From contig CP021231.1 in assembly GCA_003999685.1 (NCBI GenBank), forward strand, positions 992,001 through 1,056,000: a stretch of DNA of 64,000 nt, in the 5' to 3' direction. Positions 16,426 to 64,000 of the stretch are shown here, one piece after another. Position 1 is the first letter of the stretch. Each line of letters begins with the position of its first letter. The stretch comes from Taiwanofungus camphoratus. Lineage: Eukaryota > Basidiomycota > Agaricomycetes > Polyporales > Taiwanofungaceae. The notes below the pieces were generated by a model. That model did not search any database and was not told the DNA's origin. It saw only the letters and a program-made list of their open reading frames with translations. The translations under genes and the position numbers were made by a program.

Positions 16426-16557
16426 GGCAGGGGCAGGGGGACGTTATAGAGCTCAGCTCTGATGCTGGGCAGCATGCAGATCAGATAGAGGTGGATGAGG
16501 GCCAGGCTCAGGTAGGTAAGTTCTTTTTCCCCTTTTCCATGGTTCTAATAGTACATG

Positions 16558-41415: not shown

Positions 41416-41431
41416 ACACAATCCAGTAAGA

Positions 41432-42360
41432 AAACCCCATTGCAATGGGCCAATAAACGCTGAGTTTGGCCCATTGTGAATGGGCTGTCCAACATCAGCC
41501 GACCATTGAAACAAGCCTCGTTGCAACCAGTCAGCTGGGCGTGAATATATTCCCGTTGCAACGGGTCAGCCAGTCATAAAACCTACCCATTGCAATGGGT
41601 CGGCCGGGGATGGGACCATCCCGTTGAAACAGGTCAGCCAGGCAGGGTACCTATCCCGTTGCAATGGGTCAGCTGAGGATGGGACCATCTCGTTGCAACA
41701 GGTCGGCTGGGCAGGGTACCTACCCGTTGCAACGGGTCGGCCAGTGATGGAACCATCCCATTGCAATGGGTTGGTCGGGGATGGGACCATCCTGTTGAAA
41801 TGGGTCGGCCGGGCAGGGTACCTACCCATTGCAACGGGTCGGCCGGTGATGGACCCATCTCGTTGCAATGGGTCAGCCGGGCAGGGTACCTACTCATTGC
41901 AACGGGTCAGCCGGTGATGGAACCATCCCGTTGCAACGGGTCTGCCAGGGATGGGACCATCCCGTTGCAACGGGTCGGTCGGTGATGGAACCATCCCATT
42001 GCAACGGGTCGGCCAGGGATGGGACCATCCCATTGCAATGGGTCGACCGGTGATGGAACCATCCCATTGCAACGGATCAGCCAGGGATGGGACCATCCCG
42101 TTGCAATGGGTCGGCCAGTGATGGAACCATCCCATTGCAACGGATCGGCCAGGGATGGGACCATCCCGTTGCAACGGGTTGGCCGGTCATGAAACCCCGT
42201 TGCAACAGATCAGCTGGCCGTGATACCATCCTGTTGCAACAGGTCAGCTGGGCAGGGTACCAGCCTGCAGTAATGGGTTGGCCAACAATGGAACCAGCCA
42301 GCTGCAATGGGTCAGCGGGCAATGAACCCAACCTGATGCAATGGGTGAGGCAAGAGTGGG
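41432..42360. repeat. 34-bp satellite with the palindrome CCCGTTGCAACGGG
   Basis: Roughly 27 units of about 34 bp. Each has a 14-bp perfect palindrome (CCCGTTGCAACGGG or its CpG-decayed form CCCATTGCAATGGG) plus a spacer of about 20 bp of three types: GGTGATGGAACCAT, GGGATGGGACCAT or GGGCAGGGTACCTA. Spacers are repeated, not unique. The array starts exactly where gypsy copy 2 stops and ends about 200 bp before the TET/JBP gene. It may be a sub-terminal region of the KDZ element or a local satellite. Confidence 0.85.
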
Positions 42361-42571
42361 TCAGCTGAACTGGGTTCAACCTGTTTCTGCCCATGTTTTG
42401 CTGATTTTGTCTATTACATACATATATTTTTTATTGGCTTTTATTTACAGTCATTGTCATATTGTTTGTCATTGTATACATGCATTTGGTCCATGTCAAT
42501 CATTTTTTTTTTCACTTGCCAATTTCAACTGTACCTCAGACTCATCACCTTTGATTTTGAATGAAACTGTC

Positions 42572-43860
42572 ATGAGCACACCTATGGCCAATCACTTTGA
42601 ATATACTGAGAATGTGGCATCTTACCTTCATCAACTTTTCTTGCATCACCTGTCTCAAATGTCCCTTGATCCCCCTCCACCTCCTTCTTCTATATACCCC
42701 AGCTTGAGCTTCTCATTGAGATTTGTTCAGAATGCCTATCAGATATCTGCCAAGTTGGCAGAAGCCTATATGACCCGCTGTGAGCCAGAGACAGTTGTTT
42801 TGATGTCTCCATTGCTGATGTTGTATGATTGAGCAGTGACAGTGCCCTGGGACATCAGAGCCTATGCTGAACAGCTGACCCCTCAAATTTCTGGGTTCAA
42901 CAAGGCTCAAGAGGCCAGGATCTCTGAACAGTTCCCTCCATTGTTTGAAGATCCCATGCCAGTCATCAAAACCCCAGTGACTGTAGTGGATCAGCATGGG
43001 AAGATTCTGGTATGGCATCTACCTGATGTGCTGAGCCCAGAGCATCAGGTGAGTTTGATCTGATTTTTGCTTGTGATGATGAGCATGATGTTTGAGATGG
43101 TCAGCACCAGATATGGGATGATTCAGTGATGCTGAACCAGATGTTGAAATCCCATCATCCCCAGTCAGAGGGCAACTGGAGGATGAAGTCTGAGTATTAC
43201 ATGAATGAAGACCAGTGTGAGCAGTTCCTCCCTGGATGCATCAACCTGTCCCCAGCATGGTTTCAACAAGGACATGAGGTGAGTGACAAGGGATTTCATG
43301 CTCACATCAGTTCTGAGATGAGGTCAACACCCAGAGCATGAGTTTCAATCCAGAGGTTTGCAGTGTGCTGAAGAAGCCAGACTCTGTGAGCAGAGTATGG
43401 CTGCAGAGGATGAGGGAGACCTCTGCGTTGATAGGGGGAATAATAAGCATCATTCACCCTGAGCTTTACAGGTCTGGCCTCATTGAGAGGGACGCAATGG
43501 CTTCCAGGGGTGGATGAGGTGCTGAAGGAATGGCATTCGCCCTTCAATGCGATGAGCTTCATTGCCAACAGGGAAAGTCCCAGTCACAGAGACTGGAAGG
43601 CCATGGCATGCTGGTATGACATCTTGGTGACCATTGGGAACTCTCAAGATTTGACCTTGGATCTGGAGGGGGTGGGGGTGAGACTGGCCTATCCTAGTGG
43701 GACCATCACAGCCCTGTCTGGGAGGACCATTTTGCACAGGGTGGTGGGGAAGGAGGAGGAGAGGATATGTCTAGCCTACTATATGAGGACCAAGATACAT
43801 GAGAGAGCAGAGGTGTCGTTGGCTGGTTGGATGAGTGTAGATACATATGATGGAGTGTAA
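42572..43860 (+). pseudogene. TET/JBP-like 2-oxoglutarate/Fe(II) dioxygenase
   Basis: Family members oxidise 5-methylcytosine (or thymine) in DNA. Exons 42572-43048 and 43105-43278 have clean GT-AG borders and keep frame; a third starts at about 43335. The catalytic double-stranded beta-helix lies at about 43480-43830: SPSHRDWKAMACWYDIL supplies the H-x-D iron ligands (His codon 43585, Asp codon 43591), GRTILHRV the distal His (codon 43735), and CLAYYMR the 2-oxoglutarate-binding Arg. WYDIL and the YPSGTI block fit fungal TET/JBP proteins. One in-frame TGA follows LLMLYD in exon 1, and there is an apparent frame change near 43480, unless an unusual intron lies there; this copy is therefore probably inactive. 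The catalytic residues themselves are intact. Confidence 0.78.
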
Positions 43861-43959
43861 TATGCAACTTGACATGCCCACACTCTCAGACATTGATCCA
43901 ATGACCAAGCTTTGAGACATCAAAGGACTCCATCCATCATCCCTCTGCCCACAGGCACT

Positions 43960-44420
43960 GGACCTTACCCAATGGCACCAGTCCTGACCTGACAGCACTG
44001 TACATCTTTGCACCGGCACCGAACCTTCTATTTCAGGTGCCGTGCAGTGCCGTGGCTCTGCCCGATGGTGCCGGACCTGACCTGATGGTACCGTACCTCT
44101 TCCCACCAGTGCTGGACCTGACCGGACAGTGCTATACCTCTTCCCGCTGGCACCGCACCAACCCTGATGGTGCTGGACATCTGCCTGACAGTGCTGTTCC
44201 TCTGCTAACCGGCACCGGACCTGACCCGACAGTGCTGTATTTTTTCCCATCAGTGCTGCACCAACCCTGACGGCACCGGACATCTGTCTGACAGCACCGT
44301 TCCTCTGCCAACTGGTGCCAGACCTGACCCAATGGTGCCATACCTCCTCGGTCCAGTGCCAGACCTCCGCCCATCAGCACTGCACCTGTCTCCACTGGTG
44401 CACCTCTTGCTGCCAGTGCT
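43960..44420. repeat. 20-21-bp minisatellite between TET/JBP and the 293-aa gene
   Basis: About 20 units of 20-21 bp alternate two types with the cores GTGCYGGACCTGACC and GTGCYGTACCTCTTCC. It is non-coding here. It begins about 100 bp after the TET/JBP stop. Core and period relate it to the other arrays of the element. Confidence 0.8.
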
Positions 44421-44632
44421 GCAATCCATCAATGAGTTTGATAGACATCATGGATGTGAAATTCTGTAACTTGTTTGGCATCTGTGATTGCCATGCCCAT
44501 GGGCAGAGGTGCTGATCTTGAGTCCATCAGTGGCATGTCATGTGACCTTTAAGGTTGAAATGATGCATCTGATATCAACCTCCCCATCTCCATCCCATTC
44601 ACCTCCCTGTCCATAAGACCTCTGTGACCTCA

Positions 44633-45691
44633 ATGGCATCTGCTGCTACCATTTCCCTGCTTGACTCTATGGAGGCACATCTGGTCCTCTCTGTCCATCT
44701 GGAGATCATAAGGGCCAACACCTTTCCTGAGGATGCAGAGGTGCAGATGGTCATGGCCAAGGGAGTGGTGAGTACATGATGGACCCTTGGTGCCATTGTC
44801 TGAAGGACTCACACATTCACATCCCCTGTTGTAGCTCTAGGCTGCTATGACCATTGGCCTGAGAGCCATTGCAGGCTTGGATCTTCACATCCCTCCTAGC
44901 CTTGAGGACTTGGTGAAGAGTGATATGCAGGGGCTTCTCCATCAGGTGAGTGTCATCCTGAACTCTTCCATTGCCTGGAGTTCATGGTCCTCCATAGACC
45001 CAGCTGGCTCCAGCATTGCCCAGGGAGTCTGAGAGTGTGGTGGACACAGGGCCCACTGAGCTTCAGACCCCATCAGAGGATGTCCAGCACCCTGCTGTTG
45101 AGAAATCCAGATCACACCCCAACCTGAAGCTGTGCAGTGCCCCAGGTCCCAGCATCTCCCAAGATCATGCCATCAGGATAGGCAACTGGTGGAAGGCCCA
45201 GATGGGTGATGTCCCTCCTCCCTGTCATCCAGAGATCCTTGATCTCTTGCAGTTTGTCCAACAGATCTTTCAGGGGAATGACAGGTATCTGAGGCAAGGA
45301 ATGGTGCTTGCTGTCAAGCACAAGATGGAGGCTGATGCTAATGTGAGAGGCATAAAGAGAAAGGTGAGTGCTCTCTAAGTGCCTCTTGTCCCCTTCCATC
45401 TTGAACCAGACCACACAGATCAATGAATGGAGAGCCCATGTGGAGGAGCAGCAACATCCTGCTGTCTTGGCTGTTCCAGCATATGAGGGGCCTGGTCTGG
45501 ATGAGTTGGCCAAGAAGCTGTCTGCTCAGATGGACAAGTCCATCTTGGAGTACTTGAAGGGAGTGCAGGCTCACATGCTGCATGTGAATCAGCAGCTGGA
45601 GTATGAGATTGGGGTGAGGGTCAACATGCTCAGGGAGATTGACATGATTGCCAAGATATGGGACCTGGAGAAGGAGCCTGTGCTTCTGTAG
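44633..45691 (+). CDS. Intact 293-aa gene of unknown function in the KDZ-TET element
   Basis: Four exons, 44633-44767, 44841-44945, 45004-45363 and 45410-45691, join in phase without stops; all three introns (46-73 bases) are GT-AG with GTGAGT donors. The start is the first ATG of the open stretch (MASAATISLLDSMEAH). The N-terminus is helical, followed by IPPSLEDLVKSDMQGLL, a Ser/Pro-rich linker, then IGNWWKAQMGDVPPPCHPEI and a C-terminal helical part (LAKKLSAQMDKSILEYL, YEIGVRVNMLREI). No signal peptide, membrane segment or known catalytic motif is seen. It lies between TET/JBP and the convergent KDZ gene and is the best-preserved gene of the element. I do not recognise the family. Confidence 0.78.
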
Positions 45692-45864
45692 TTGTCATGT
45701 GAACTTATCTGTAGCTTGTCCACACAATGATATCAATTTCTTTCCTGAAGGCTTGAACTGATGTGCGGATGTCACAGTAACAGTCCCAGCATAAAGTTGC
45801 AGTCCCAGGTTCAGTTCCAGCCATTGAAGTAATGATGTTGACAGTGAAAGGTGCATAAGGTGAC

Positions 45865-46030
45865 CAGGCCAGCAGGTAAAGTTGTGGTGCCGGTGGGTGA
45901 AGTTGCAGTGCCGGTGGGCAAAGTTGCAGCGCCAACGGGCAAAGTTGTGGTGCTGGCGGGTGAAGTTGTGGCACTGGCGGGCAAGGTTGTGGTGCTGGTG
46001 GGCAAAGTTGTGATGCCAGCAGCCCAAGAG
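45865..46030 (+). repeat. 21-bp minisatellite between the 293-aa gene and KDZ
   Basis: About eight units of 21 bp with the core GCAGTGCCGGTGGGCAAAGT lie between the convergent ends of two genes. The plus strand reads as a 7-residue Val/Gly/Lys repeat, but no start or splice context makes it a gene. Confidence 0.85.
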
Positions 46031-46091
46031 TCACCCCATAGTATTTATGTGATGTTGACATAGGCTGTGGGCATGCATGAATACAAACATC

Positions 46092-49000
46092 CTACAGTAC
46101 ATGGGCTACTTGCTCCACCCATTGACATAGCCTCTCTGCATCTCTTGCCAATGCCAAGTACAAGGATGCCTGTTGAGCACCATATGCCCTATGACCCATC
46201 TGGTCCCTGTCTGTGGATTCCTGCATGAGCCTCACCCACATCTCGCTCTGGTGGGCAAAGTAGTTGGCAGCAAACCTCATCTCATACCTCAGCTGCTTCT
46301 CTTCTTCCACCACCCTGTCATACCTGGACTTTGCCCTAAACCAATTCACCCTATAAACTGTCACCCCCAGCCATTCATGAGACACAGCCCAAGGGGTGAT
46401 GGCACTCACATTCCTGCATATATGAGTCCGTGTCGCTTTCCCCTTGAATATCCATGGTCCAGAACCATGAAAGAGATGTCCCCCTCTCTCCTCTTTTATT
46501 GGGATCCACCACTGCAGTGCTCACCTTCAGGTGCTCTCTGTGCAGAACCTGATACTTGGCCAGGAGGCCAGCTGGGGCCTCAAGAAGCACCAGGGCCTTC
46601 CGGGCCTTGCTGTACACCCTGGCATGATGCTGCAGGGTTTTGTCTATGGTGTTGACATCCTGCCATGCCCTGGTCTTCCTCTGCTGGGACTTGGCATGGC
46701 GCACTTTGGTGCGGAACAAGAATGACTTTTGCCTGATGGCGATCCAGATCTGATGAAGGGCATCGTTGGCCTGACCTTCCCTGAGATCCATCTCCTGCTG
46801 CAGAAGCACTTGAAGGCCTGCCCGGTGGCACCTGTCCACTCCGGTGGTGGATGGAAGGGAGAGGGATGAGTATTTGGCCTCCACCTCAGGGTTGACCCCT
46901 TGTGAACTGGGCACCTCAAAGGGATTGTCCATCTTGGTGACATCCCACTCCTTACCCAGATCCTGGTCTGGTGGTAAAACCTCATCTTCCCACTCCTCCC
47001 TATTGTCATCCATCAGGCTGGCCATGTACCTTAATCTTTGGGACTCAAAGCTGTCGATCCTCATTTGCAGCTTCCTCCTCTTTTCCACCAACTGGATCTT
47101 TTGCTGGATGGTCAAATTCTGGCCCATGGATCTGACCTCAGTGGCCAAGGAGATTCTGCGCCCATCATGAGAGGATGAGGATGTCATGATACATGGCGCC
47201 ACTCACTGTGTCTCCTGCACCTTCAGGCCCTGAGTCAACCATCCAACAGCCCCTCGGGACAAACCCAGGTGGGGCTCCTTCTCGGCCAGCCTCAGTTAGA
47301 TGTCGGCCTGGCTCGGTGCTGAAGAATGAAGGCCGATGTTGAAAAGGGATGATTCCAGCTGCATGCCGATGCACTTACCTTTCCTGAGCTCCACATCAAA
47401 GACATCCATGGCTTTTTCATCCTTCAGCCTGTGTCATTGAGCCTTTCCCATCTGCAGTTTCCACTGAACCAGCAAAATGGGATCGATGCTGGCCTCCATG
47501 GCCTGATATGACCTTTTGGTGTCTGTCAGTATGGGCTTGATGTTCTTGTACTTCCTCTGCAAGGAAGACACTGTGTGGGATGCCCTGCAGCCAAATCCAC
47601 TCATCGTCGGGACGGGACCCTCATACTGGTGTTGATGATCTTCTTCCAGTTGGAGTCATTCATGTGCCGGTTGAGAACCTCCTTCCGGTGAGAGGTGGCC
47701 ATGCCTTTGGTGCTGCTGGACACCTTGTTCAGAGAAGACCAAAGAGTCTCGAGGATCTCCCCATCCACCAGGCCGGCACCAGAGATGAAGCTGGGTGAGT
47801 ATCGAATGAAGCAGGCATTCTGGTGCCCATGCACATGGAACAAGCCGATGCCCTTGACAATTTTGAGACCTTCGGGCATCTGAAGATAGGGATTTTGCTG
47901 GAACTGCTTCAGCAAATACTGACCATACTGGCAGTTGATGTCATAAAGCAGGAGCATCCTGCCAATGTCCTTTGTGTTGTACCCAATGGCATTGGACAGG
48001 GAGTAGTCCATGTTCATCTGTCTCTCCCCCTTTTGAAAGTCCATGACGGAGTGTGGAACAAAGCAGCCATGCTGAGGACAGGCAGTGGCTCTGATCCCGG
48101 TGAACTCCAGCTTGTGTCGGTCAGCATTGGCCAGGTTGACGGCCTTGTGGTTGTGACAGGTGCCTGGCTGTGCAATGGGAAAAAAGACACATGGGATCAT
48201 GGGCATGGGGATCAGTGGGATGGGAACCTACCCCCTTGAGCTCTTTGGCCACCTGGAGATGGGCCTTGTACCTGCCATTGGCCACAAAGAAGCCGGTGCC
48301 GTCAGTGATCTCCACATCATTTTTGGACCTCCTCATCTTGAGATGTTCTGCAGAGAAGTTGCCATCCATCATGAACCCTCGGGTGTACACTGATCTGGAC
48401 ATGGTCAGACCGGGCACAGCCAGACCAGGGTCAGATCGCTTACTGGTCAGAATGTTCCTTCCAATCTGGGTCCAGATTGACTCCAGATTGTGGGCAGGCA
48501 GCGCAGAAAAAGGCAAGGTCACCTTCTCCAGGCTGCTGTCTGAATGGGTATCCAAACTCATGTTGCATGAGGTCCTTGAGATGAGACCACTGTCTGGTGA
48601 CCCTGAGGAATTGCTGATACCGGTCCTTGACGGTGGGGTACCCCATGAGCATTGGCAATCTCCTTATGGGTGGCAGCGGGAGCACTCACTGGCACAGCTT
48701 GAGGGAAAACGGGATTGGTCACCCTCCTGAGCCGGCTGTAGAAGTTAAGGGCAGAGGTCTTGCATTCGAGGTTCTCCAGCAGGAAGTCATTGAGGACCTT
48801 GAAAGTGAAACATGTTTTGATGTGCCTGTGGCTGTCCGGGTAGAGGCCCATGTCCAGCAGCTGGTCTTCATGATGAGGGGCATTCACACACCTGCACCAG
48901 TGAATGGTAAGTTGGTGAATGCCAGAGGTATCGACCACAACCATCATTTGATGGTTGCTTCTGGTGCCAAATGCCACAAAGGCATGATTTCTGTCAATGT

Positions 49001-50190
49001 ACTCTGAAGGCGATCCCAATGTTGCATGAGGTATGCCCTGTGTCTCACTAATGGCACCACTATCTTCACCGACAGCACCAAGATCATCGCTGACGGTGCC
49101 GCAGTCATCACCGATGGCACCGCAATCATCGCTGACGGCACTGCACTCATTGCTGATGGTGCCGCGCCCATCACCGACGGCGCTGCACCCATCGCCGATG
49201 GCACTGCACCCATTGCCAACGGTGCCGCCACCATTGCTGCCAGCACCGTGACCATCGCCGATGGTGCCGTGACTATTTTGGATGGTACTGTGTTCATTCC
49301 TAACAGTGCCATTGGTATCATTGTGTGGTAATTTCCAATTATCTAGTTTTTGAATGAGCACACACAAGATGCTGTTCTTGAGCACACCTCTGAGGGCACC
49401 ACTCACTCGGCATGTCATCTGGCCCTGGGTTTGTGAAGACCAGAATGTCATCCGGCACCTCTCCCCCCTCCTCTTCCAACACCCAGTCATCCTTGGCCTC
49501 TTCCTCATCAGAGGATATCCCATCCTGTCTGTCCAGGGTCATGGGGCAGGCACTCCCCTCATGGTCAAGCTGGATACATGCTCCCACGTCTTGCAACCAA
49601 GCCGGGGCAAAGAAGGTGTTATGGGTCCATTTCTGGATCCTGTGGAATGGTAGCCTGGCATGTTCCAGTTTGCAGCACTCCATACAAATCATGGGTTTGG
49701 CCAGGCAGTCCAGACAGCACCAGAGCGCCCCCTTCATGCTGCACTGGGTGCAAGAATGACTGGAAGAAGGGTGTGATCGTGGAGAGGGTTCTGTATGGTG
49801 GGGGGCACCCTCATGCATGTACAGTCTATTTAAGTAATGCTCTTTGCTCCCCAGCCACTCCCTCATGAGATCAGGTTGAGACTGTAAGAAGAATGTGAGC
49901 TGTGATGCCATTGCAGTCCCATTGGCTCAGACGATGCCCACCTGAGTGGATGGAAACACAGGCTGAGAAATATGATCCTCATAGACAGGTGGATCATATC
50001 CTGCATTGGCATGCCTGCTTGTTCTTGGAGTTCGGAGAGGGGTGCTCCTGGTAGGAGTGCTGGGCAAGGACGAGCCAGGCTTATTTTTGATCTGCATCAA
50101 CTGAGAAATCACACCTCTGGAAGTCTTTTTCTGCTTCCATTTGGCCTCTTGGATAATGGGGGAGCTCAATCTTCTTTTTCTTTTTCCCAT
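46092..50190 (-). pseudogene. KDZ-family transposase with CxC2 domain, two stops
   Basis: DDE-type transposase, ten exons: 50190-49942, 49899-49407, 49342-48690, 48625-48444, 48394-48232, 48167-47627, 47570-47379, 47318-47207, 47155-46410 and 46357-46092. Together they give about 1,198 codons in phase, normal for the family. Exon 1 is basic (GKRKRR). Exon 2 has the CxC2 zinc cluster (CTQC, CLDC, CMECC, PFHRIQKW, GSACP). Exon 3 has FLLENLECKTSALNFYSRL. Catalytic acids: Asp in MMDGNFSAEHLKM, Asp in LLLYDINCQYG, Glu in VDGEILETLWSSLN. The C-terminus has LREGQANDALHQIW, TSLSWFWTM and FYRVNW. Two in-frame stops lie in exons 7 and 8 (KAQ*HRLKD and QADI*LRLAE), so the product would be cut after the catalytic core. 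Convergent with the 293-aa gene, divergent from the HMG-like gene. Confidence 0.92.
49046..49325 (-). repeat. 21-bp minisatellite within KDZ exon 3
   Basis: About 13 units of 21 bp, minus-strand core GACTGCGGTGCCATCGGTGAT-like (first 20 bases GACTGCGGTGCCATCGGTGA), encode a 7-residue repeat (SAVGDGC, GAIGDDC) between the CxC2 domain and the catalytic part. Read on its own strand it is nearly the same unit as the array after the HMG-like gene. KDZ proteins I know of have no such repeat here. Confidence 0.85.
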
Positions 50191-50408
50191 CAGGTTCACC
50201 TGTTTTGTGGTGAAGAGCGGAAACACAGAGAATGCACTCAAATATGTGTATTGAAGCTTGAGAGCAGATGCGTGCGAGTGCACATTTGCATGACAACAGG
50301 TGTGACCCATTGGGTTGGAGCAACTTTAGCAAAAGTGCACAACAGCTGAAGCACGTCAAACTAGGGATCTGCCTTGCCTCACTGCTCTGCTGCTCACTCA
50401 CTTAAGCC
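50191..50408. promoter_or_regulatory. Shared divergent promoter region, copy B
   Basis: 218 bp between the KDZ start codon (-) and the HMG-like start codon (+), conserved with 7011-7212. It has no clear TATA box; it includes GTGCACATTTGCAT and a CTTAAGCC just before the HMG-like ATG. Regulation of both genes from here is inferred from layout. Confidence 0.45.
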
Positions 50409-52783
50409 ATGCCTAGGAACTCCATCCCTCAGACTCACAAGGATGCCATTGATGCTTTGTTCCCTGAGTGGAACCAGGCAGACAGAGCAGCCCGAGCGCA
50501 GTTCCTGCAGGATGTGTACAAGGATCTGGAGGAATTGGAGAACAGGAAGCTGACAGATGAGGAGAAAGAGGTGAGAGGTGCTGCTCTACATGACAGAGGA
50601 CGTGCTCATGATCATCTCGATGCAGGCATTGAAGAAGTATGCAAGGAACAAGCAGGAGAAAAAGGCAGAGAGGAAAGAGTTTGATCCGAAATCATCATAC
50701 ACCTGGAGGAGTGTGGTGGTGACCCATGGCAAGGAGGAACTGATGCACAGGATGGCCATTCTGACTGGGGGTGCCAAACCAGGCAGCCCTCAGCGAATCA
50801 CCCATTACCAGACCGTGAAAGCACAGTTGTGTGCTGCTGTGTCAGAAGAGCAGAAGGCTGCCTATGTGAGGGAAGCTGAGATATGGAACACAGAGGGAGC
50901 TCCTGCAGATGTCCAGATGGCCAGAGTGGAGAAGCATGGGGAAAAGGCAGTCAAGGAGTTTGCCCAGTACATCTTCAAGATGATGGGCATGAGGGTGTAT
51001 GTGCTGGGTGCGTACAGGGGAAAGAATGCCAAGATCTACACCACAGAGTGAGCGTGTAGTCCTCAATCGTCCTCTCCTCTCTCACCTCCAAGCCTCAGTT
51101 TTGATTTCAATGACCAGTTGGGCGGTGGGGACAAGGTGGAGGACAAGATGGCAGACTGGAACTCAGAGGAGTATCTGAGGTTGTTCAAGAGATATGCAAA
51201 CACCCAGTTTGGTGAGTGTCAGAGCCCATGTTGTCCACCATCCTGATAGCCATTGACACCGGGACAGCACCGGAGCAGGAGGTTGATGGGGAGGAGGAGC
51301 CAAAGAAGAGGAAGAGGAATACGGAGCCGGCACTGGAGCTGGACACCACAGAGGATGGGGAGCCCCTTCTTCCATCTCAGGAGGTCATCTCAGTGGCAAG
51401 CCTGAATCAGAAGAAGCAGTTGATAGCACAGTTTGTGCGCATGCATTATGGTATGTCCCCCATCCCTGTGGCCGAGCTGCTGGGCTGACTGGCAGATTGT
51501 CTGGGATGTCCCATAGTCAAGTGCTGTGGGATGCCGGAGGTGAAGGTGCCTTGGGGGGTGTTGCAGTTTGAGCAGGACAAATACATCTCAGTGGTGTATA
51601 TGCCAGAGGACATCACTCTGAAGGACTGCACCAAGATGATCCATGCAGATGTGGACCGGCTTCTGAACTTCTGGTCTGACCGGCAGGATGACCCAGAGGT
51701 GGACTACACCTTCAAATTCAAGGCATGGAAGGGCAGGGACAAGGAATCTCAGCCGCCAGTGAAGAGGGTCCCATCTCAGCCTAATCATCTCAAGCAGGCA
51801 GGCCGCAAAAACAAAGGCAAGGAAAAGGCAGTGACGCCACCTCACCCTGAAGACGAGGAAAACACCACCAAATTGGACAAAGGCAGTAGCTGTCACGATG
51901 AGTCAAGTGACATAGAGAATGGGAATGAGCTGGGGCCTAGTGAACCACATTGGTCAGGTCACACACAAAGACCCAGAGTGGTGGGCAGAGGTAGAGCACC
52001 ACTCACAGGAGATGTGGCAGCGGCAGGGCCAACGAGTGTACATATGGCGCTGGCGGGTGCAAGTGCGGTGCCGGTGGGTGCAAGTTTGGTGCCGGCAGGC
52101 AGAGGTCGGCCCACTGGTAACCCTTTATCTCAACATACCCAATCACCATCACTGGCACATGCTGGAGGACAGCCAGTGGCTGGTCATGTGGAGGATGAAG
52201 GCAGTGCGTCAAGAACTCTTGTGCTGGCAGTACCCAGGACCAAGTTCAAGTCACCAGCAATGGTCCAAGACAGTCCTGAGGCAAGACAGACTTATCTGCT
52301 TAGTCTGTCCTGACAGATGTCATATCGCAACTTCATCAAGGTCATCCCCAAACTGGTGTGTTGTTGTGCTTTTCATATTCATCATGACAGCCTCAACATC
52401 CCTTGCCCAGGCTCACATTATTGTTTCTGGCAATCGGTCTCATCAATGGGCCTGGGGGGAATGGAAGTACACCTCCCCCCACTGTACTAGAGCCATCCAC
52501 AGCAATATGGCCACAGGCTCCAAGTTCGCCCAGTGGCTGTCCTCGAAGCCCTATTACACCAGCAGGAGGGACAACTTTAAGCTGGACATGGTGAAAACCC
52601 AAAACATGGTGCTGGTGATTGGGCTGATGCTCAGGGACTTAGAGGAGGCCCAGGTGGCCAATGAAGTGGAGGGTGAGCCCACCGACTTGCCTGACTATGT
52701 TCTCAACTCAGTGCTCAGTGTGGACATGGTGGAGAATGTCCTGCTGCCTGCATGCAATGAGATGAGGGTAGGCATAGAGGCGG

Positions 52784-53763: not shown

Positions 53764-54035
53764 TCTCCTCCTTTTTGGAATTTGGACCGTCCTCAGTCCA
53801 CACGTAATGCCTAGAAGCTTGATGGATGTGACTGGATCGAAGCTTTATGGGGACCTGCGCAGTTCTGACCTTCTCGTGACTCGTGCTGACCTTCTCGTGA
53901 CTCGTGCTGATCACGTGCCATCAAAGAGGATTTAAGCCGGTGCAACTTAGCTGTTTTTCTTCGCTCGTTGTTCCACATTCGACATGCTCCCCTTTCTTCA
54001 TTCTAAACTGCTCCATATTTTCTTCCTGCTTTGCA

Positions 54036-55833
54036 ATGTCAGCCCGCTCTGCGACACCCGTTCTTGCCTCATCGCATGCACAATGCACTCACGGCCACCT
54101 CATCGCCATGCTTGACGCACCTTGTGACGCGTCTGCCTCTGTTGGAGAGGTGGAGGAGTGGGCTCAGAAGGTTGCGGGCCTCCTGGTAATGTTACTGGGG
54201 GGTTCACCCTGGTAATGCTGCAGAAGCTTGGAGCGGTGTGCAGCGAAGGGTCGAGGAGGAGCGGCAGTGATGACGAGTCATGATCCTCAGTAGTCTTCAA
54301 CTACAAGCCCCTATGTAGTCGCGATAGTCTTTACGGGCTTCTTGAGGTGTGAGAAGATGTGTAAAGAAAAGTATGTATTGGTACTAGTGCATAGTACACT
54401 TTGGAAAGAATGAACGAAGAGAATATGACTAGGGGAACCTCCAGCAGTGGGTCCCTCCTTTATACGGCCACCGCCAATCCCCAGGTATACTAGCAGCCCC
54501 CCCAGAGACCGCATAAGGCAAGAGGAGTCAGCAGCCCAAAAGTACATAACTACCATGGCGTAAGCGGGGACAGTCGGCCCGTCAGTCAATCTGGGTAAGT
54601 AAGGTGTGGAAGGGATGCTGCACGTCCATGGTGTGACAAACAAAGGGAAAGAAAAAATGAACAAGTCTCTAGTCCTACTCGACGGTAACAGGTAAGTGAC
54701 TTAGTCCTTCCTTGTTATACCACTGCTGATCTTATTGTAGAGTACGTATCGTAAGGCCCGAGGCACCATCAAAGATCCTGAGGTCGAGGGATGCATCGTC
54801 ATGCTCGTCAAGGACCTCACTGAGCGTGCAGCTGAGTTGTGGGTCCACTGGGCCTGCGACGAGTGGCCCGCACTTTTCGTGGCCATCAACATCACCATTG
54901 TGCGTCATGCGGAGGAGGAGCGGCATTTGGAAGAAGAGGCACACGCTGCCATCGCCGAAGTTTGTCGTTTGGAGGAGGAGCATCGTCAGTGGGAGGAGGC
55001 CGAGTGTTTGGCTAGAGAGGAGGAAGTGGCTGCCCATCTCGTGCAGGAGGCCGAGGAGCTGCTTGAAGGGGCCGCCGCTCCTTCGAAGGGTAAGAAGCGG
55101 GCTCAGAAGGAGGAGGGGGTAAGTGCGGCTGTAAGTGGCTTGGTCCTCCTCATCCTTCTACTGATTTGTAAAAAGGCGTCGAAGGGTGATCGTGATGGCT
55201 CGACGATGCCCGAGACTGACTGGGCATAAGTTGCACATCGGAAGCAGCAGGCGGGGGAGAAGGTACGTCTTTGTTATGCTGTGTGCCTTCGATTTGACTA
55301 ACACTTCTTTCATAGTGCGATCGATGTCGCACCCGTACCCAGACTGTCAAGTGCACCTGGTCAGAGGGTGCTACGGTGTGCGACCACTGCATACAGGTGG
55401 CACAGGGGTGTTACTTTGGTGGCATCTCAGTTTTGGGGAAGACGAAGAAGACGCGCGGCGGTGGTAAGAAGCAAGGTAAGTGTCCTCTTGTTAGTTTATG
55501 ACTTTGTTTCTAACCCTTCTTTTTCCAGTGCACGCCCCTTCTGCTGGCCCTTCGACGGGGGAGGCCAGTGGGTCGAAGCGTTGTCGAGTGATGCAGCCAC
55601 CTCGTCCCGCCGTCAAGGTCCCCCTGGATGGCAGTAGTCACCTGGGCCTCAAGCAGGATGACCTGGACGAGCAGTCTCGTGTTGCTATCTGCATGATTCG
55701 GGTGGAGTGTGCAAACCTAGTGTTTTGTCGCACCATGCTCCACGACCTCGACCTGGAGCTGATTCGGATAGAGCAAGAGGTGATTGTGGGCGGCGGCTTC
55801 GTAGTTGAGCCGGAGTCGGGCGACAAGGAGTAG
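54036..55833 (+). pseudogene. Antisense accessory gene of gypsy copy 3
   Basis: Same plan as 35858-37168: start MSARSATP, VEEWAQKVAGLL, WVHWACDEWPAL, a Glu/Arg-rich coiled-coil-like stretch, a cysteine cluster (CDRC, CTW, CDHCIQVAQGC) and a C-terminal block ending GGGFVVEPESGDKE. Exon-like segments keep GT-AG borders. A solo LTR (54190-54690) lies exactly at the first donor site, within what would be the first intron. Function unknown. Confidence 0.6.
54190..54690 (-). repeat. Solo LTR, 501 bp, with perfect 5-bp target duplication
   Basis: Ends are TGTTAC...GTAACA; GGTAA is present at both 54185-54189 and 54691-54695. A TATAAAG on the minus strand at about 54460 suggests minus orientation. 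No other copy of this LTR is in the window. Confidence 0.9.
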
Positions 55834-56239
55834 TCATTGTCTTGTGGTGGGTCGTGGCTTTCTTGTATTAGTAGAAAATTAAAAGTTCTTCGTTCCATGT
55901 GAAAAAGTGTGATAGAAGAAAATAGAAGCATTCGAAGAAGAAGAACATATTGAAGGACTTGGTAAGAAAAATGGTAGCGTTTGTAGGCTCAGTTTGTCAT
56001 CACTGCCTAGGAGGACTCGTAGAATGTGAGCCTTCGTGCAACGTTCAAATTGAAGCGTTTGTAGAACGTCGAAGCGATATCGTGACTTAGTCGAGTTGAA
56101 TCGTGTATGGTACAGGTAAAAATGTCACTAGATCAAATAGAAAGAGAGGTGAAATCAAGCATATGGTAAGAGAAAAGAGACCGTTGAAAGTACGCATCGT
56201 AGTAATATAAGTAGAGAGACAGGGGCTTCTACTGCTCGC

Positions 56240-59200
56240 TTTCTTCAATGTCTTTGATGATGTCATCATCATCGTTGCTGAGTGAATTGGATCGTTCAAG
56301 TTCTCGAAGACGCTCAGTTGAGATGTCTTCTAGGTTGTCCGGGATCGAGATGGATTGTCGAGCGAAGTAGGGAATGACTCAGAATGCTGTGATGGGCCTG
56401 TCGAGGACTGTGCCGTCCAGTTCGCAGATGATGTACGTGCCGCCCTTGTTGCGCGAGACAACAATGAGGGGGCCTAGGTAGTGGGGGTGCATCTTGCTAT
56501 TCAGGGACTTCTCTATCTTCATGTTTCATACAAGCACTAAGTCTCCACGTTTGAAATTAAAGTCCTTGATTGAGTGCTCGTGCTCCTTTTTGAAGCGAAG
56601 TGCTGCTGTTTAATGGGCTTCGTAGACCTTCGAGCTGAGATCGGCTACTTGCTCTACACGCTTTTGGAGCGCAATTGCTCTGCATGTGATGAGATCTGTC
56701 GTAGAAAGAATTGAAGTGGGAGGGGGCTGAAGGTACGTGGCTTCTACAATGTCGAGAGGGATGAGGGGGTGAGTGCCTGTGACCACAAAGTATGGTGAGC
56801 ACCCCATGCATCGTCGAGTCGTAATGTGTTCGGACCAGAATACGAAGTACGCCATGTGAGACCATTTCTTCTCATCTCTGTCGGTGGTTTTGAACAAGGC
56901 TTGTCTCGTGCTGAAGTGTAGTCGTTCGACGAGTCCGTTCACTCTAGAGTTGTAGCCGCTGATTTGAATGTGGTTGATGTGGTATTTCTTCGACAGATAG
57001 TCTGCCGCTTTGATAAACGCTGCACCATTGTCTGTAACTATCTCACTGAGCACACCCCATCAACAGAGGATGTCTTCAAAGATCCAGTCGGCGAGCGCTG
57101 ACGCTGTTTCTTTTCAAAGCATTCAAAACTCCGGGTACGTCATGAAAGAGCATCTTCTTTGTACGAGGTACTTGTATTCACCTGATGCGGGCATATGCAT
57201 CGTATCGATATGTATCTTTGCGAAGATAGAAGTGGGCATTGCGACGGTAGGGGGAATAAGGATTTGCTGAACTTGACGAGACTGGCATAGATGGCACGTT
57301 CGAACGAACCATGCTATATCTGTGTAGTGGAACGGCCACCAAAATCGTTCATTGATGAAGACTTTCATTGCGTAGATGCCCCGATGAGCGATGTGGTTGT
57401 GACATTCTCGAAGGATTCGAAGTCGATCGCCAGGCTTGATGACCAACTTGTGCGCACCATGGTTGTCTTTTCACCATAGAGTGTCGTTATCCAGGAAGAA
57501 CAGCATGCAGTACTTGAGAAACCCTTCGTATTCACCATCCGAAATGCCTTCTGGCTTCAAAAGTGTTTGATGAAACTCGAGGACCTCGTCGAGTCTTGCA
57601 TCTGCAAGCTGCACTTGCTCTGAACGTGGGACGATTTCATAGCTATCCTCCTCTTTTTGAAATTGGAGCCATCCTCAGCTTCTGCATTGGTTAGGATGGA
57701 CATCACAGGGGTAGGAGGGGGAGGTAGTATCTGATGGACGAAGGAGTGCATGTGATCAATCCAGTCGTTGAAGTCTTCATCAATTTCTTCTACGATAGTG
57801 TCGCCTGGCTGTGGTGTACGTCGAGAGAGACCATCAGGGCCATGCATTGTACCGGGAACATGTACTATCATGAAGTGGAATGTGAGGATGGCTACTATCC
57901 AGTGGTTGATGCTTGCGCTGGGGGTGATATCTAGGTTCTTGAGCATGCCTTTGATGTAGCGAGCATCGACTTCTATGATGAGGTTTCAAACGCCAAATGA
58001 AGTGTTGACTGCGAGGATTACGGGGGACGGGGAATTGTAGTTGATAGCTCGTAGTGTGGGGGAGGAGAGTAGAGTGTCCTTGAGGTCTTCTTGTGCTACA
58101 ATTTGCTCAGGACCGAATTCGAACTCTACGTCCTTCCTCGTAAGGTGTACGAGGGCATCAGTGCGATGGGCGAAGTTGCATATGAAGATTCGAACAACTC
58201 TGATGGTTTCTAGGAACGCTCAAACATTGGAGAGCATAGTGCAGGGGCCCCAGTTGCGTATTGCTGAGACTCGAGAGTCGTCGGGCAATCATCTTTCAGG
58301 AGTACACTGGTGTCCTATGATCATGATCTCGCACGAGATTAGAATGCTCTTTACGCCGGAGAAGGTTCCTCCTGCATAGCGCATTCGAGTAACGATTTGA
58401 TTCAAGTTTTCGAAGTGTTCTCATACAAATTTTCGAATCCCATGGTTCGAAGGCAGCCGCTCGTCGTTGTAGTCAGATGCGGGGCCTTTGACTGGAACGT
58501 TGTCGATGTAGGGGACTGTAGAGTGTGGGATTTCGGGTTGTAGAATGTACGTGACATCGTTGTGGAATATAGGGACTGAGTTCGTCCAACCCATCGGAAG
58601 GGTGACAAGTCGCATGGCGTCATAGAGAGTTTGAAACGTCGTAAGGTCTCTCAAAAACTCCGCAATGAGTCATTCATTGTAGCCTACGTAGAGGTCGAGC
58701 ATGCCACCGCACGGTCTTCCTTCAAACTGTTCTGTGAGATATTCTGGCATTGGTGGTACCCCAGAGTGCTGTATAGTAACTGCATTAAGGGGCTCGAGGG
58801 AGTGTACAAGTTGAAGAGATTTCCCGTCCTTCTTTACTACGCAGAACCAACACGATCGGTACGATGAGTTCGAAGGCTCATAGACTCCTGCGTCGATCTT
58901 TCGCTTGATTATGGCGCAGACTTGATTGTAGATCCCGGGTGGAATTGGGATATTCTTCTGCACCCAGGGCATATGTGGTATGACAGGGAAATCTACAGGA
59001 GGGAAGTACTCTAGTTTGAAGCATCCCCTTTCTTCGTCGGTCTATGCGAAGGCTTCGTTGTGCAAGCACATGAAGTGATGGAGGACTCAACGCTCGTCGG
59101 AGAGCAGGAAGGTGCCATCATGAAGCTTCTCCAAAATTTTGAACCGTTCACACGTATAGTGGCCAGTAGGTTCAAAGGGCGGGGGATTAGTTGAGAGTAC

Positions 59201-62200
59201 TGGCATAATGGAAAGGGGGTCCCCCTTAATGTCTCAAACTATTTGAAACCGTTCGGGGACCACTTCTAGAACAGGACGAGTCTTGAGTGCGACTGGCTTG
59301 TACTTCTTCTTAGTGGCTGCGTAGGTTTCGTGAGTCAATGTAGAAGATGTCGGATGAATGAAATTAAGAAGCTGAGAGGTCGAAGTGCGAGTCGAAGAGT
59401 TCGAAGAGGACAGATTAGGAAGTGAAGCAAAAGGGGCTGAAAATAGAAGTGTCAAAGCCCACGTCGAAGCGTTCAACGTGGCCGTACGGGATGCTTTTGT
59501 GTCTGCGGTATAAAGGGACTGCAAATGTGAGGAGACTGAAGAACAAACAGAGAGATAAAGAGACTGGACTGCACTGGAGATCGAAGAATTTATCGGAGTG
59601 ATGAAAGAAATACTTGGCTTTGCCCCATCGTAGTTGATGACTAGGGCTGCTTCTCCTTGACGATGGGGTATCAAATCCTTGAAGCGTGAAAACCCGCATG
59701 TGGACAGCTTCTATGATGTTGCAGTCGAAAGTGTGGTTTTCTGCGTGGATACGTAGGAATTGTGAGGGTTTCGCTGGAGTTGGGACATACTATCGTGATG
59801 GTTTGTTCTTTGTTTGCGAAGTTCTTTACGATGCTTTGCGTAAGGACATCAAAGGGTCGTCCGAGAAGAATGTCGTATGCTGCGTTTCGAATGACGTGGG
59901 CCTGAAGATATAATACTACCTCACCAATCTGGAAGGGTACGTTGCGTATGAGCCCTAGAGATCGGTCTACTTCACCGTTGGCGGACTGCATGTTTAACTG
60001 TATCGTAGGGTCAAAGAGAAGCTTCAGGCCTAAACAGACTTCCTCCGACATTGCTACAATTTGTGAGCCTGGATCTATGATGCATTCGATCTGCTCTTTA
60101 TTGTTGACGAGCGTGTAGATCGAATGGATAGCGTTCGAGTTGCAGGCAACCGTGAGATCGACGGGATGTTCGTCATGCGGGACATGCTTGAGATAGGTTT
60201 TGTAGGCGTCAGGGATGATAGTAGCTCCTGGCTGTAGCGCTGCACCTGAACAAGATAGTTGGTGTACCTCTTTTGCTTCGTCTTTGTCAGTAATCTCTAC
60301 AATGTGTGCCGAAGTGACGGGTTCCGCTGATACTCGCTTGGGTGTAACTGCTTCTCGATACCTATTGTGTACGTCGGGCGAGATCGAAAGGAGTTCTTCT
60401 GGCATCAGCGTGATGAGAGGAGATCTCATTGAGCACGCAAAGATGTCGTTGGCTATCTTGGGCTGATGGATGGGAACTATGGTCTTGTAAGCTGGGTCCT
60501 TGCCCTTGTCGTTCAAAGGCTTAGGCGGCATAGTGAAGTTTCGAAGGTTCGGCGGAGCGTAGGTCGCATCTCGAGCATTTGCGAAGGGATGGACTGGGGG
60601 TGCTGATGGAGTAGATATGGTAGCAGGCTGTGTCGAAGGTACAGACAGCGAGGGAACTATAGCTGCGGAAATCGTTGAAGGTGCAGAGGTACTCATCGAG
60701 GGTTTGGCTGGGCTTGCTGGGATCGGGACTGCGGTAAAAGTGGCTGACTTGGCTGTGTCAGGTGCTGGGTTGTTGGTACTGCGTGAGATGGGGGTCATAT
60801 CAGAAACCTCTGTGGTCTGCTGCGGTGTCGTAGTAGGTTTCTTGCGCTGTAAAATCTCGACGCCATTGAAGACCTCTCTACGTTTTCGAAGCTGTAGGAG
60901 CTCTCTTTCGAGGGCTTTGATTCTTCCTTCCATGTTGAGCATGAAAGTCTGGATGCTGGCTTGTTCGTCAATGCTGTAGAGCAGGCCAGGTGCTGCTGGC
61001 ACGTTGCAGCAAATCCACTCGTAGAGGCAGTCGCAGATCGTAATGCCAGGGATACTACGCGGGATGAATAGACCGTTTGGGAGTACGACCTTTCCTTTGG
61101 TGTTATGCTTGCATTTCCCGGCAGCTATGTCTGCTTCTACGTGCGGGCAGCTTCAAATACTATGGTTCTGGTCACCACAAAAGTGGCAGGTCTGTTCTGT
61201 ACCACCTTGGGTTGACGGAAGCCTAGCGGCTACGTTCAATTTGTTACTACTGGGCTGAATAAGGGTGGCGATGGTCTTCGATAGGCTCTCAATGATCATC
61301 GAGATGTCTTCGGTCTTAATCATGCCAGGCAGAGTAGTTGTCGAAGCTGTTGTCTGTGGTGCTGCGACTGTTGGCGTACTTGAAGTATCGTGAAGAATGA
61401 ACGTGGCTGCTGCGTGAATATCAGAAAGTGGATAGGGGTCATTGGGATAGTGGTCAGAATGCTTCAGGTGAAGTCGGGCCTCGAGTTGTGCGAGTAGAGA
61501 AGGCTGAAAGCCTCGCAGGAACGCTCGACTCTGTTCGATGTCGGAGAGTCGTTGTTGCATGATTAGGTGCTTCGTAATAGATACGAAGTCGCGGTAGTAG
61601 CTTCTGAGGTCTGCGGTGTTGTGGATTCCAATACATGCGCACTCCCCAATCAACTGGTCCATGTCTGCAAGGGACCATTTCCTGGTGTCATCGGTACCTG
61701 GGTAGAGTGCTAGGACGTCAGCTTTCCACTGTGCATATGTCTTGGTCTGATCGGAAAAGAATTTGAGGGTTTCCCATAGGTCTGCGATGTCGATCAAGGG
61801 GTAACGAATGGCCCATGACTTCTTTTCTGTGTCATCGACTATTCTGCACTGAGTGAATAAGACTTCGATGTCCTGAAAGTAACGTCGAAGCGATCGGACT
61901 TCTGTCAGATCGAAGATGGGGGCTGTCAAATGGCCTTGAGGGGGCATAAATGGCGTAGGTGCTGCGTTCTGATTCATTGTAGGTTTAGGAGTAGAGGGAT
62001 TGACGATGGCTGGTGTGGGATGATTTGAAGAACTGGGAAGAATGTACGGAGTAACGGTCTGCTGGGACGAGGGTAGAGTCGTAGTAGTAGGGATAGCGGT
62101 ATGCAATGTTGATTCTACTGGGTCCTCTGGCTCAGGTGATGAACCGGACTGTTCGTAGGGATCGGGGGACGAGAGGTTGACTTCTGGCATAGATAGCCCT

Positions 62201-62439
62201 AGAAGCTTGAGAGATGAAGTACGTTCATCGGAGGTTGAAGGAAACTCTAGCTCGTGATCTACAAGGTCTTCTTCCTCATGGTCAAAGGTGTCAGGAGTTG
62301 TGAAAAGGGTGGTAGAACTGTTGTCGAGGTTTTCACTTGTGCTACGACTGGCAGCCTCATATGCTTGTGAACGGGTGAATACTGGAGACGTTTTCAGCAA
62401 ATCTGAAAGCGGTGGATTCCTTGCCTGAAATCCCCTCAC
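56240..62439 (-). pseudogene. Gypsy copy 3 gag-pol region
   Basis: Parts from the right: gag 61153-62439 (starts MRGFQARNPP; LEARLHLKHSD; zinc-knuckle start CHFCGDQNHSI); spacer plus aspartic protease about 59671-61002 (CIIDPGSQIVAMS, YDILLGRPFD); reverse transcriptase about 58040-58980 (VVKKDGKSLQLVHSLEPLN, YIDNVPVKGP); RNase H region and connection (VHVPGTMHGPDGLSRR) about 57557-57950; integrase about 56610-57450 (H2C2 and VTDNGAAFI). The family is Ty3/gypsy without a visible chromodomain. Broken in several places, though gag and protease each remain as long open stretches. Confidence 0.9.
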
Positions 62440-62454
62440 GGTGGGCTCCAGAAA

Positions 62455-63466
62455 TGATGCGCACTATAACACTTCAACCCCAACTGGGTACAACCTAGAG
62501 AAGCTGGAAGGCTATAGAACTAGTTAGTGTGGAGGGGAGAGTCAGCAGCAAAGGGTTCCTGATCTCAAATGGGTCAAGAGACGTCTATGAAGGTCTTCGA
62601 TAACCTTTGACGTGTGTCGTGACTGCTCGATGTAGCTTCAATGCATTACTATGCTGTACCATACTAAGGAGAGGCTCAAACGTGAGAACTTAGCTGATAT
62701 GCAGCCCTTTGAAATACTGTAGAAGGCGGACTTGGGTTAGAGAGAGATGCTAGCACAACCCTTCAATGTGACTCAAAGATGGACGTAAGACTGAATGCAA
62801 CTCTTTGATGGATGTCGAAGACGGACAAGATGCAACCCTTCAAGATACTGTAGAAGGTGGATAGTAGACGCAACTCTTTGAACGTAATCAAAGATGAAAG
62901 GATGCAGTAGAATGCAGTAGGAGACTGAATCGAAGGTGCTCTTCTTGAGCTCTGCAAGATGGGGGAAAACTTCTCTGTTGTTCCCAGACACCATACATCG
63001 TGTTTATACTACTGTACTATAATGTAAGGTGCATCAGGAGTGGCATAGTATGAGTGGCATCCTAACTACTTGCATACTACGAACTACGGAGTGGCATGAA
63101 ATATACTAAGACAAGACCTGGGGCCGTAGCATTATCGAGTACATCGAGTGGCGCGTCATAGCAGATCGAGTGATATCAGAGTGGCACGTCATAGCAGATC
63201 AAGCGATATCAGAGTGGTGAGACCAGTCACGTGCAAGGACATTGAGTGGCAACTGCATGTGGCGTATTGTGCGTAGAGGGAACGGTACACCAGAACATTG
63301 GACCGAAACTGGCGGAGTGGTGGTGGCGTGATTCGAAGCCATCAGAGAGTCCCACAGTGGCTTTTCAGGCTGTATCAGACACGTCGAGTGGCGTCGAAGG
63401 TATGACTAAGGTCCTAGGGTTGAGTGAGGGTGCTCTGCGGGGCCTAGAAGGGCCTGGTGCCTATCA
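62455..63466 (-). repeat. 5' LTR of gypsy copy 3
   Basis: Begins TGATGCGCACTATAAC next to the gag leader and ends GCCTATCA, followed by GCGG. 1,012 bp; a short internal duplication (ATCAGAGTGG region, about 63170-63215) accounts for most of the length difference from the partner LTR. Confidence 0.9.
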
Positions 63467-63784
63467 GCGGTATCAGAAGACACTGAGGTGATGGGGGACA
63501 GCTCCAGACTGACCAGATCGGCTTCAAGGCATCCCCAGGCACAGCCCGGTAAGTCTGGTGGACCTGATGTGCTATCTGTGCCAAAGAAGAATGGTGCCGG
63601 TCCAAAGGAGGGGAGCCAGAAGAGGAAAAAAAATGAGTTGGAGCCTGTGGAGGAGGAGGATGAGATGGAATCATCATCTAGGAAGAAGGGGAAGGGGGTG
63701 CCTGGACGACCCAAACCCAGGCCGGCCAACAGGGGTGGGAGGAGGACTGTGGCTTAGGGTGCATTCAGAGGAGGAAGACCAGGG

Positions 63785-63975
63785 TTCCAGCACTGGCAGC
63801 GATGGATGTGGCACTGGTGGCGATGAGTGCGGTGCCAGCAGCGATGATTGCAGCGCCGGCGGCGATGATTGCAGCGCTGGCGGCGATGATTGCAGCACCG
63901 GTGGCGATGAGTGTGGCGCCGGTGGTGATGACTGCGGTGCTGGTGGTGATGGGTGCAGTGCTGAACCTGAGTGTT
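63785..63975 (+). repeat. 21-bp minisatellite after the HMG-like gene, copy B
   Basis: About eight units of 21 bp, cores GAGTGCGGTGCCAGC and GATTGCAGCGCCGGC, in the same position relative to the HMG-like stop as 9915-10150 but with a different unit number and order. The array is followed by the same GCTGAACCTGAGTGTTGTGG sequence in both copies. Confidence 0.85.
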
Positions 63976-64000
63976 GTGGCACCAGTGGTGTTTTTGCCTT

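What the first reader, a model, noticed from the sequence alone, without database searches (positions are those of the whole stretch)
41432..64000. A large KDZ-TET/JBP composite transposon with at least four, probably six, genes
A KDZ transposase, a TET/JBP-like dioxygenase, an intact unknown gene and an HMG-like gene sit together. Copy A (6360-16557) adds a zinc-cluster gene and a Pro/acid-rich gene beyond the HMG-like gene. Seen: both copies share the KDZ/HMG-like divergent pair and the array after it. Known: KDZ and TET/JBP genes are linked in basidiomycetes. Inferred: one mobile unit of 16 kb or more that carries its own DNA-demethylation enzyme and chromatin-type proteins.
Basis: partly seen in the sequence, partly recalled or inferred. 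Interest (0 to 1): 0.82.

Follow-up and report, generated by a model that had tools for sequence, protein, structure and literature searches.

The report
Six-gene mushroom transposon carrying TET enzyme
This stretch of a medicinal mushroom's genome holds a large jumping gene of about 18,000 bases that travels as one unit with six genes, one of them an enzyme of the family that can remove DNA methylation, so it may carry its own tool against being silenced by its host.

Summary
The central point of the finding holds. The host is Taiwanofungus camphoratus, very probably strain W1. A KDZ transposase gene, a TET/JBP dioxygenase gene and four orphan genes form one mobile element of about 17.7 kb without later inserts. 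This copy spans 41415-70934 in window coordinates, 6.9 kb past the window. A 10.7-kb LTR retrotransposon (52785-63466) and two smaller repeats interrupt it. It sits in a gypsy element that resumes beyond it, with a 7-bp target duplication (GTCCTTC). Of 5 tested pairs of left- and right-type ends, 3 have exact 7-bp duplications; 4 tested pairs with two left-type ends have none. All six genes keep one order at six loci, two of them probably one segmental duplication. Both ends carry inverted arrays of a CpG-dense 34-bp palindromic repeat. Copies show about 5- to 18-fold excess C-to-T change at CpG, a methylation footprint that fits a role for the TET gene but shows that it did not prevent decay. 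TET-carrying KDZ elements are published; the six-gene cargo and array-built ends may be new. The HMG and zinc-cluster labels fail profile tests. Transposition and demethylation are inferred, not shown.

The parts
41415..42360 (+). Left end of copy B (CACACAATCCAGTAAG...) and array of a 34-bp unit with the palindrome CCCGTTGCAACGGG; matches the inverted right end over 526 bp at 79.8%
42572..43857 (+). TET/JBP dioxygenase gene with three introns; frameshifted by a 5-bp deletion near 43480 in this copy, open in copy A
44068..44349 (.). GC-rich tandem repeat between the TET gene and the unknown gene
44633..45691 (+). Unknown gene, 296-aa spliced model, open; no CpG in 44500-45700
45878..46017 (.). 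21-bp tandem repeat between the unknown and the KDZ genes
46095..50325 (-). KDZ transposase gene; KDZ domain in 47604-48227, CxC2 cluster at about 48714-48959; exon limits at both ends uncertain
49084..49261 (.). 21-bp tandem repeat inside the KDZ gene
50409..52784 (+). Orphan gene called HMG-like (564-565 aa to the stop at 52308-52310; 789 aa in NCBI protein P0001); its end is cut by the LTR retrotransposon
52785..63466 (-). LTR retrotransposon inserted in the element (LTRs 52784-53763 and 62455-63466, 87.7% alike); not part of the element
63467..63754 (+). C-terminal part of the HMG-like gene after the insertion
63796..63956 (.). 21-bp tandem repeat after the HMG-like gene; the element goes on beyond the window to 70934 (L025) with the zinc-cluster-like gene, the Pro/acid-rich gene and the right array
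6358..16555 (+). Part of copy A: end of the KDZ gene region, HMG-like gene, zinc-cluster-like gene (-, about 10269-12680), Pro/acid-rich gene (about 12920-14010 and 15790-16511, split by an insert at 14015-15787); the copy begins at C12:978630, left of the window

Best explanation
One DNA transposon of the KDZ superfamily, about 17.7 kb without later inserts, that carries six genes: TET/JBP dioxygenase, unknown protein, KDZ transposase, and three further orphan proteins (HMG-like, zinc-cluster-like, Pro/acid-rich). Shown: common ends, terminal inverted repeats built of a CpG-dense 34-bp palindromic array, exact target duplications, one gene order, a TET frame with its metal-binding motif, and CpG decay. 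Inferred: the transposase acts on the terminal arrays by cut and paste; host CpG methylation silences the element; the TET enzyme oxidises 5-methylcytosine on the element and so helps to reopen it; accessory proteins may bind the arrays. The family looks old and several copies seen are damaged.
For: Copy B interrupts a gypsy element whose homology resumes on the far side, with GTCCTTC on both sides; related gypsy copies run through this point. Exact 7-bp duplications also at C13:229429-255314 and at the 4-kb C11:1183977-1187980: 3 of 5 tested left-right pairs. Six loci hold all six genes in one order (tabulated in 76). PF12851 E 3e-16 and CcTET structures E 4e-32; KDZ E 2e-41, CxC2 E 7.6e-24. 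C-to-T per site at CpG 0.23-0.29 against 0.013-0.051 elsewhere in four element regions. NCBI proteins of T. camphoratus at 91-93% identity support two gene models.
Against: 2 of 5 left-right pairs lack an exact duplication (5 of 7 and 3 of 7 bases), and 4 of 4 tested pairs with two left-type ends have none. The TET gene of copy B is frameshifted, the C13 copy lacks ATG and the usual stop. CpG loss in genes and in the arrays shows that the enzyme, if active, did not keep copies unmethylated. No expression, methylation or activity data were seen. In Cryptococcus neoformans KDZ elements are mostly unmethylated and methylation does not explain their mobility (PMC12810828, passages).
Confidence: 0.6

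Rival explanations
1. The TET and accessory genes are neighbours that gathered beside a KDZ transposon in a repeat nest and are not moved by it.
For: The region is a nest of LTR elements, and single genes or fragments occur alone at several loci.
Against: One pair of ends with a target duplication encloses all six genes in copy B, the gypsy flanks show the insertion as a whole, and the order recurs at six loci.
Confidence: 0.04
2. The family is extinct here: the TET and accessory genes are relics, and the CpG decay is what is left after lasting methylation.
For: Copies differ by about 5-9% in most comparisons, several genes are broken, copies hold nested inserts, genes are CpG-depleted.
Against: Copy A keeps an open TET frame; NCBI holds open proteins for two genes; in the HMG-like gene the coding frame has fewer stops and amino-acid changes than the other frames in most exons. 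Not exclusive of the best explanation for the past.
Confidence: 0.45
3. The TET enzyme does not demethylate in favour of transposition but makes a lasting mark (oxidised mC) or acts on 6mA, or acts on all repeats without targeting.
For: CcTET, the nearest solved relative, also acts on 6mA, and oxidised mC co-localises with 5mC over transposons of Coprinopsis (as told by Kojima 2025).
Against: Of the two CcTET residues tied to 6mA, Gly331 is Ala here, while Asp337, needed for 5mC, is kept (alignment; roles as told).
Confidence: 0.3

Closest known systems
TET-positive Kyakuja DNA transposons of Agaricomycetes (Kojima 2025, PMC12730594)
   Same: KDZ transposase and an AG-like TET/JBP gene in one element; 7-bp target duplications; 5' end CA; Polyporales among the hosts; same proposed role against methylation
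   Different: Kojima reports CA..TG ends without TIRs for Laccaria families; here the right end is ..GGGCTC or ..GCTT and there are long inverted arrays. Four accessory genes are not mentioned in the text read; Table S1 and Data S1 could not be read
KDZ1 of Cryptococcus neoformans (PMC12810828, passages read)
   Same: KDZ transposase with a cysteine cluster; long TIRs
   Different: About 11 kb, 241-bp TIRs, 8-bp duplications, CxC1 instead of CxC2; the passages read name no TET gene
VANDAL elements with VANC anti-silencing proteins, Arabidopsis (PMC10398659, abstract and outline read)
   Same: A transposon that counters its own DNA methylation; tandem repeats in noncoding DNA
   Different: VANC is a sequence-specific binding protein; here an eraser-type enzyme is encoded, and targeting to the repeats is not shown
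CcTET of Coprinopsis cinerea (7vpn, 8jkk)
   Same: Nearest solved relative, E 4e-32, with the HxD motif and Asp337
   Different: Gly331 is Ala here; activity not tested

Membership tests
KDZ superfamily | KDZ transposase domain PF18758 | tested here: met
   E 2e-41, 142.5 bits, cutoff 26.6
KDZ superfamily | cysteine cluster of the CxC series | tested here: met
   CxC2 PF18803, E 7.6e-24
KDZ superfamily | target duplication of 7 or 8 bp | tested here: met
   3 of 5 left-right pairs exact at 7 bp; 0 of 4 pairs with two left-type ends
Kyakuja | 7-bp duplication (8 in Zisupton and Dileera) | tested here: inconclusive
   The C11 4-kb copy fits 7 only; in B and C13 an eighth base also agrees
Kyakuja | 5'-CA..TG-3' ends without TIRs, as in Laccaria | tested here: not met
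   Right end ..GGGCTC or ..GCTT, inverted repeats of 526 bp at 79.8%
Kyakuja | transposase branch in the KDZ tree | not tested
   No reference set of the three groups was at hand
TET/JBP dioxygenase | PF12851 above the curated cutoff | tested here: met
   59.5 bits, cutoff 34.9, copy A
TET/JBP dioxygenase | HxD and a downstream His | tested here: met
   HRD and ILH aligned with CcTET
AG-type TET (Kojima) | Asp337 kept; Gly or Ser at position 331 | tested here: inconclusive
   Asp kept, Ala at 331 (rule)
HMG-box protein | HMG profile match | tested here: not met
   No Pfam family at E up to 10 for P0001 and P0002
Zn(2)-Cys(6) cluster | PF00172 above cutoff | tested here: not met
   13.6 bits, cutoff 21, 16 of 39 positions, P0004; 7.0 bits for P0005
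Composite transposon | cargo between two complete insertion elements | tested here: not met
   One pair of ends, one transposase gene

The most novel reading that the evidence does not exclude
The element is a self-contained methylation switch. Its genes have been largely stripped of CpG (none in 1.2 kb of the unknown gene, 6 in 1.5 kb of the TET region), while its ends are CpG-dense arrays of the palindrome CCG-N6-CGG. Host methylation would then act mainly on the ends, and an array-binding protein of the element, perhaps the zinc-cluster-like one, would bring the TET enzyme there to license transposition: a transposon with its own targeted DNA-methylation eraser.
Probability: 0.15. Interest if true: 0.8.

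Novelty: new variant of a known kind. Interest (0 to 1): 0.5.

Why it matters
Why fungal transposons carry TET/JBP enzymes is open; Kojima 2025 says the function has not been tested experimentally. This family has defined ends, an open TET frame, a clear CpG footprint and a cultivable host with four sequenced haploid strains (PMC8865532). That makes direct tests possible: are the terminal arrays methylated, and does the enzyme act there? It also shows four orphan genes travelling with transposase and enzyme.

Tried and rejected
Rejected: a composite transposon (one pair of ends). HMG box and full Zn2Cys6 cluster (nothing above cutoff). A separate seventh gene after the stop at 52308-52310: the NCBI protein P0001 runs through as one 789-aa protein, and 3 of 13 copies are open there. 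RIP-like mutation with a TCG preference (no such preference). Protection of the arrays by TET: their CpGs are decayed too.

Led nowhere: structure models of the unknown protein (mean pLDDT 41.5) and of P0002 (36.3), so no fold search was made. Protein searches found 2, 1 and 5 hits, each in T. camphoratus, among 3763, 1274 and 7996 scored candidates (the last scored only those sharing most words). The right end of copy A was not found. Iyer et al. 2014 is not held; supplements could not be read.

Rows dropped: of 21 right-end hits I used the 13 with AGCYCATCCAGTGA and dropped 8. Three left-right pairs (C4:2531174-2548885, C5:1860580-1864579, C5:1777028-1800230) were not tested for duplications. 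C5:1508051-1521344 was set aside, since its flanks are exact inverted repeats. The two C9 loci may be one duplication, so six loci may be five insertions. The search tool calls its repeat counts lower bounds.
Full report
SOURCE. The window is C12:992001-1056000 of a 33.2-Mb assembly with 15 contigs. Searches with three of the proteins hit only Taiwanofungus camphoratus (Polyporales). P0005, named AcW1_010180, lies on a contig of 1,741,554 bases, the length of C9, so the assembly is very probably strain W1 of PMC8865532. Of that paper I saw passages and one section; 'KDZ' does not occur in its main text.

THE UNIT. A self-comparison shows copy A (from 6360) and copy B, 92.8% alike over 3.3 kb. 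B stops at 52784 in an LTR and resumes at 63467, so 52785-63466 is a later LTR retrotransposon; one of its frames has protease domains. The adjoining stretch L025 holds the rest of B up to window coordinate 70934. Two further repeats in B, at 66268-66840 and 69858-70403, are missing from the copies that could be compared there; the second matches both ends of an 8-kb insertion near by (C12, 92062-100088 of the joined stretch), so I take it for a solo LTR. Without these inserts B has 17,719 bases.

ENDS. The left end is CACACAATCCAGTAAG. The right end reads CACTGGATGAGCTT in B and CACTGGATGGGCTT in the C11a copy; TGGGCTC was read at C13 and at the 4-kb C11 copy. Both ends lead into arrays of a 34-bp unit with the palindrome CCCGTTGCAACGGG, inverted to each other: 24 cores left and 14 right in B, alike over 526 bp at 79.8%. 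The left 16-mer has 35 hits in the genome with up to one mismatch, against 1 for the reversed pattern; the right-end pattern has 21 hits against 4.

TARGET DUPLICATIONS. The left flank of B matches gypsy sequence up to 58288 of the window's other gypsy (86.7% over 293 bp) and the right flank resumes at 58292 (84.0% over 1119 bp), while gypsy copies at two other loci run through this point. GTCCTTC stands on both sides. C13:229429-255314 has AATATCC twice, and the 4-kb C11:1183977-1187980 has CTGGACT twice. C11:843727-870658 has AAATAGG and AAACAGC, 5 of 7 alike. C9:1158883-1175735 has TGGAATG and TGTCTTG, 3 of 7. So 3 of 5 tested pairs with one left-type and one right-type end are exact; a chance match of seven bases has probability 6e-5. 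Four tested pairs with a left-type end on both sides have no duplication; they may be recombined copies. In B and C13 an eighth base also agrees, so 8 bp is not excluded there; the 4-kb copy fits 7 only.

GENES AND ORDER. Six DNA queries against the genome and the two end patterns, tabulated, give the order left end, TET, unknown, KDZ, HMG-like, zinc-cluster-like, Pro/acid-rich at six loci: two each on C9, C11 and C12. The two C9 loci repeat each other's surroundings and are probably one segmental duplication. C13 shows five of the six, with the unknown gene inverted between GC-rich repeats; C5:1679418 shows five. The other loci in the table hold up to four, and many are fragments or bare ends.

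ENZYME CALLS. The TET protein of copy A (374 aa, three introns) matches PF12851 at E 3e-16 and CcTET (7vpn, 8jkk) at E 4e-32, with HRD and the downstream His. Copy B has a 5-bp deletion in this gene; the C13 copy has ATA for ATG and no stop at the usual place. KDZ scores E 2e-41 and CxC2 E 7.6e-24. The unknown, HMG-like, zinc-cluster-like and Pro/acid-rich proteins match no Pfam family above cutoff; the best hint is Zn_clus at 13.6 bits over 16 of 39 positions. Comparing copies, the proposed frame has relatively fewer amino-acid changes and fewer stops than the other two in most windows of the HMG-like gene (14 other copies). For the other genes the same test (2 to 11 other copies or pieces) gives a weaker and mixed picture, weakest for TET.

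METHYLATION FOOTPRINT. In four element regions (15, 5, 6 and 12 sequences or pieces) C-to-T per site at CpG was 139/488, 41/176, 94/407 and 69/286, that is 0.23-0.29; at C before A, C or T it was 0.013-0.051. G-to-A after C mirrors this (0.18-0.29). The base before C made little difference, except for one small class (GCG in KDZ, 1 of 19). A gypsy gave 0.20 against 0.047-0.063 (all). Related copies are counted more than once, so these are not event rates. CpG observed/expected is 0.07 in the TET region, 0.00 in the unknown gene (no CpG in 1201 bp), 0.17-0.42 in the other genes, 0.66 in both terminal arrays, 0.49-1.06 in the 21-bp-type repeats and 0.87 in the gypsy inserted in B. In 2-kb steps the element copies lie mostly at 0.1-0.5, while young gypsy stretches lie near 1; other old repeats, such as the copia element, are low too (0.18), so depletion is not special to this element. 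The array palindromes are decayed as well: at least 31 and 27 of 92 units keep CG in the left and right arm (twelve commonest classes; units chosen by their core). In the HMG-like gene 10 of 13 copies have TGA where two have CGA and one CAA.

MECHANISM. Shown: unit, ends, duplications, gene set, enzyme family, CpG decay. Inferred: the transposase acts on the arrays, host CpG methylation silences the element, and the TET enzyme counters it. The decay says that methylation, if it is the cause, acted for long and that the enzyme did not keep these copies free of it. That a zinc-cluster-like protein might read CCG-N6-CGG is a guess from recalled binding habits of Zn2Cys6 factors.

KNOWN AND NEW. 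Kojima 2025 (PMC12730594; parts 1-5 of 7 and the figure legends seen) describes TET-carrying Kyakuja elements in five orders including Polyporales, with 7-bp duplications, CA..TG ends and no TIRs in Laccaria, and proposes the same role. In Pleurotus ostreatus the intact KDZ elements were all preceded by a CxC2 region (PMC7641404, passages), as here. 'HMG' and 'zinc' do not occur in Kojima's main text. The listings showed me no description of the four accessory genes or of array-built ends, but Iyer et al. 2014 and all supplements were out of reach, and this very family may be in Repbase. I therefore call it a new variant of a known kind, of moderate interest.

Noticed in passing
44068-44349, 45878-46017, 49084-49261, 63796-63956: GC-rich tandem repeats, mostly of period 21, sit between or inside several genes of the element; some match each other in inverted orientation at 69-75% and keep more CpG than the genes.
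   Followed up: partly
L033, C13:232705-233894: In the C13 copy the unknown gene is inverted relative to its neighbours; the breakpoints lie near GC-rich repeats on both sides.
   Followed up: partly
L051 and L052, C5:1508021-1508070 and C5:1521325-1521374: Two left-type ends 13 kb apart have flanks that are exact reverse complements of each other: an inverted duplication, or an assembly artefact.
   Followed up: no
G000 C9:1158883-1207675 and C9:1247462-1290657: The two stretches repeat the same series of element parts and look like a segmental duplication.
   Followed up: no
52308-52310: A stop shared by 10 of 13 copies (TGA, CGA in two others) shortens the HMG-like protein; a CpG-type change.
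   Followed up: yes
16556-22596: A copia-type LTR element (RVT_2 E 2.7e-71) with LTRs 99.5% alike and a long open frame, next to the end of copy A's Pro/acid-rich gene; looks recent.
   Followed up: partly
14015-15787: Insert that splits the Pro/acid-rich gene of copy A; it matches 40257-38639 in inverted orientation.
   Followed up: no
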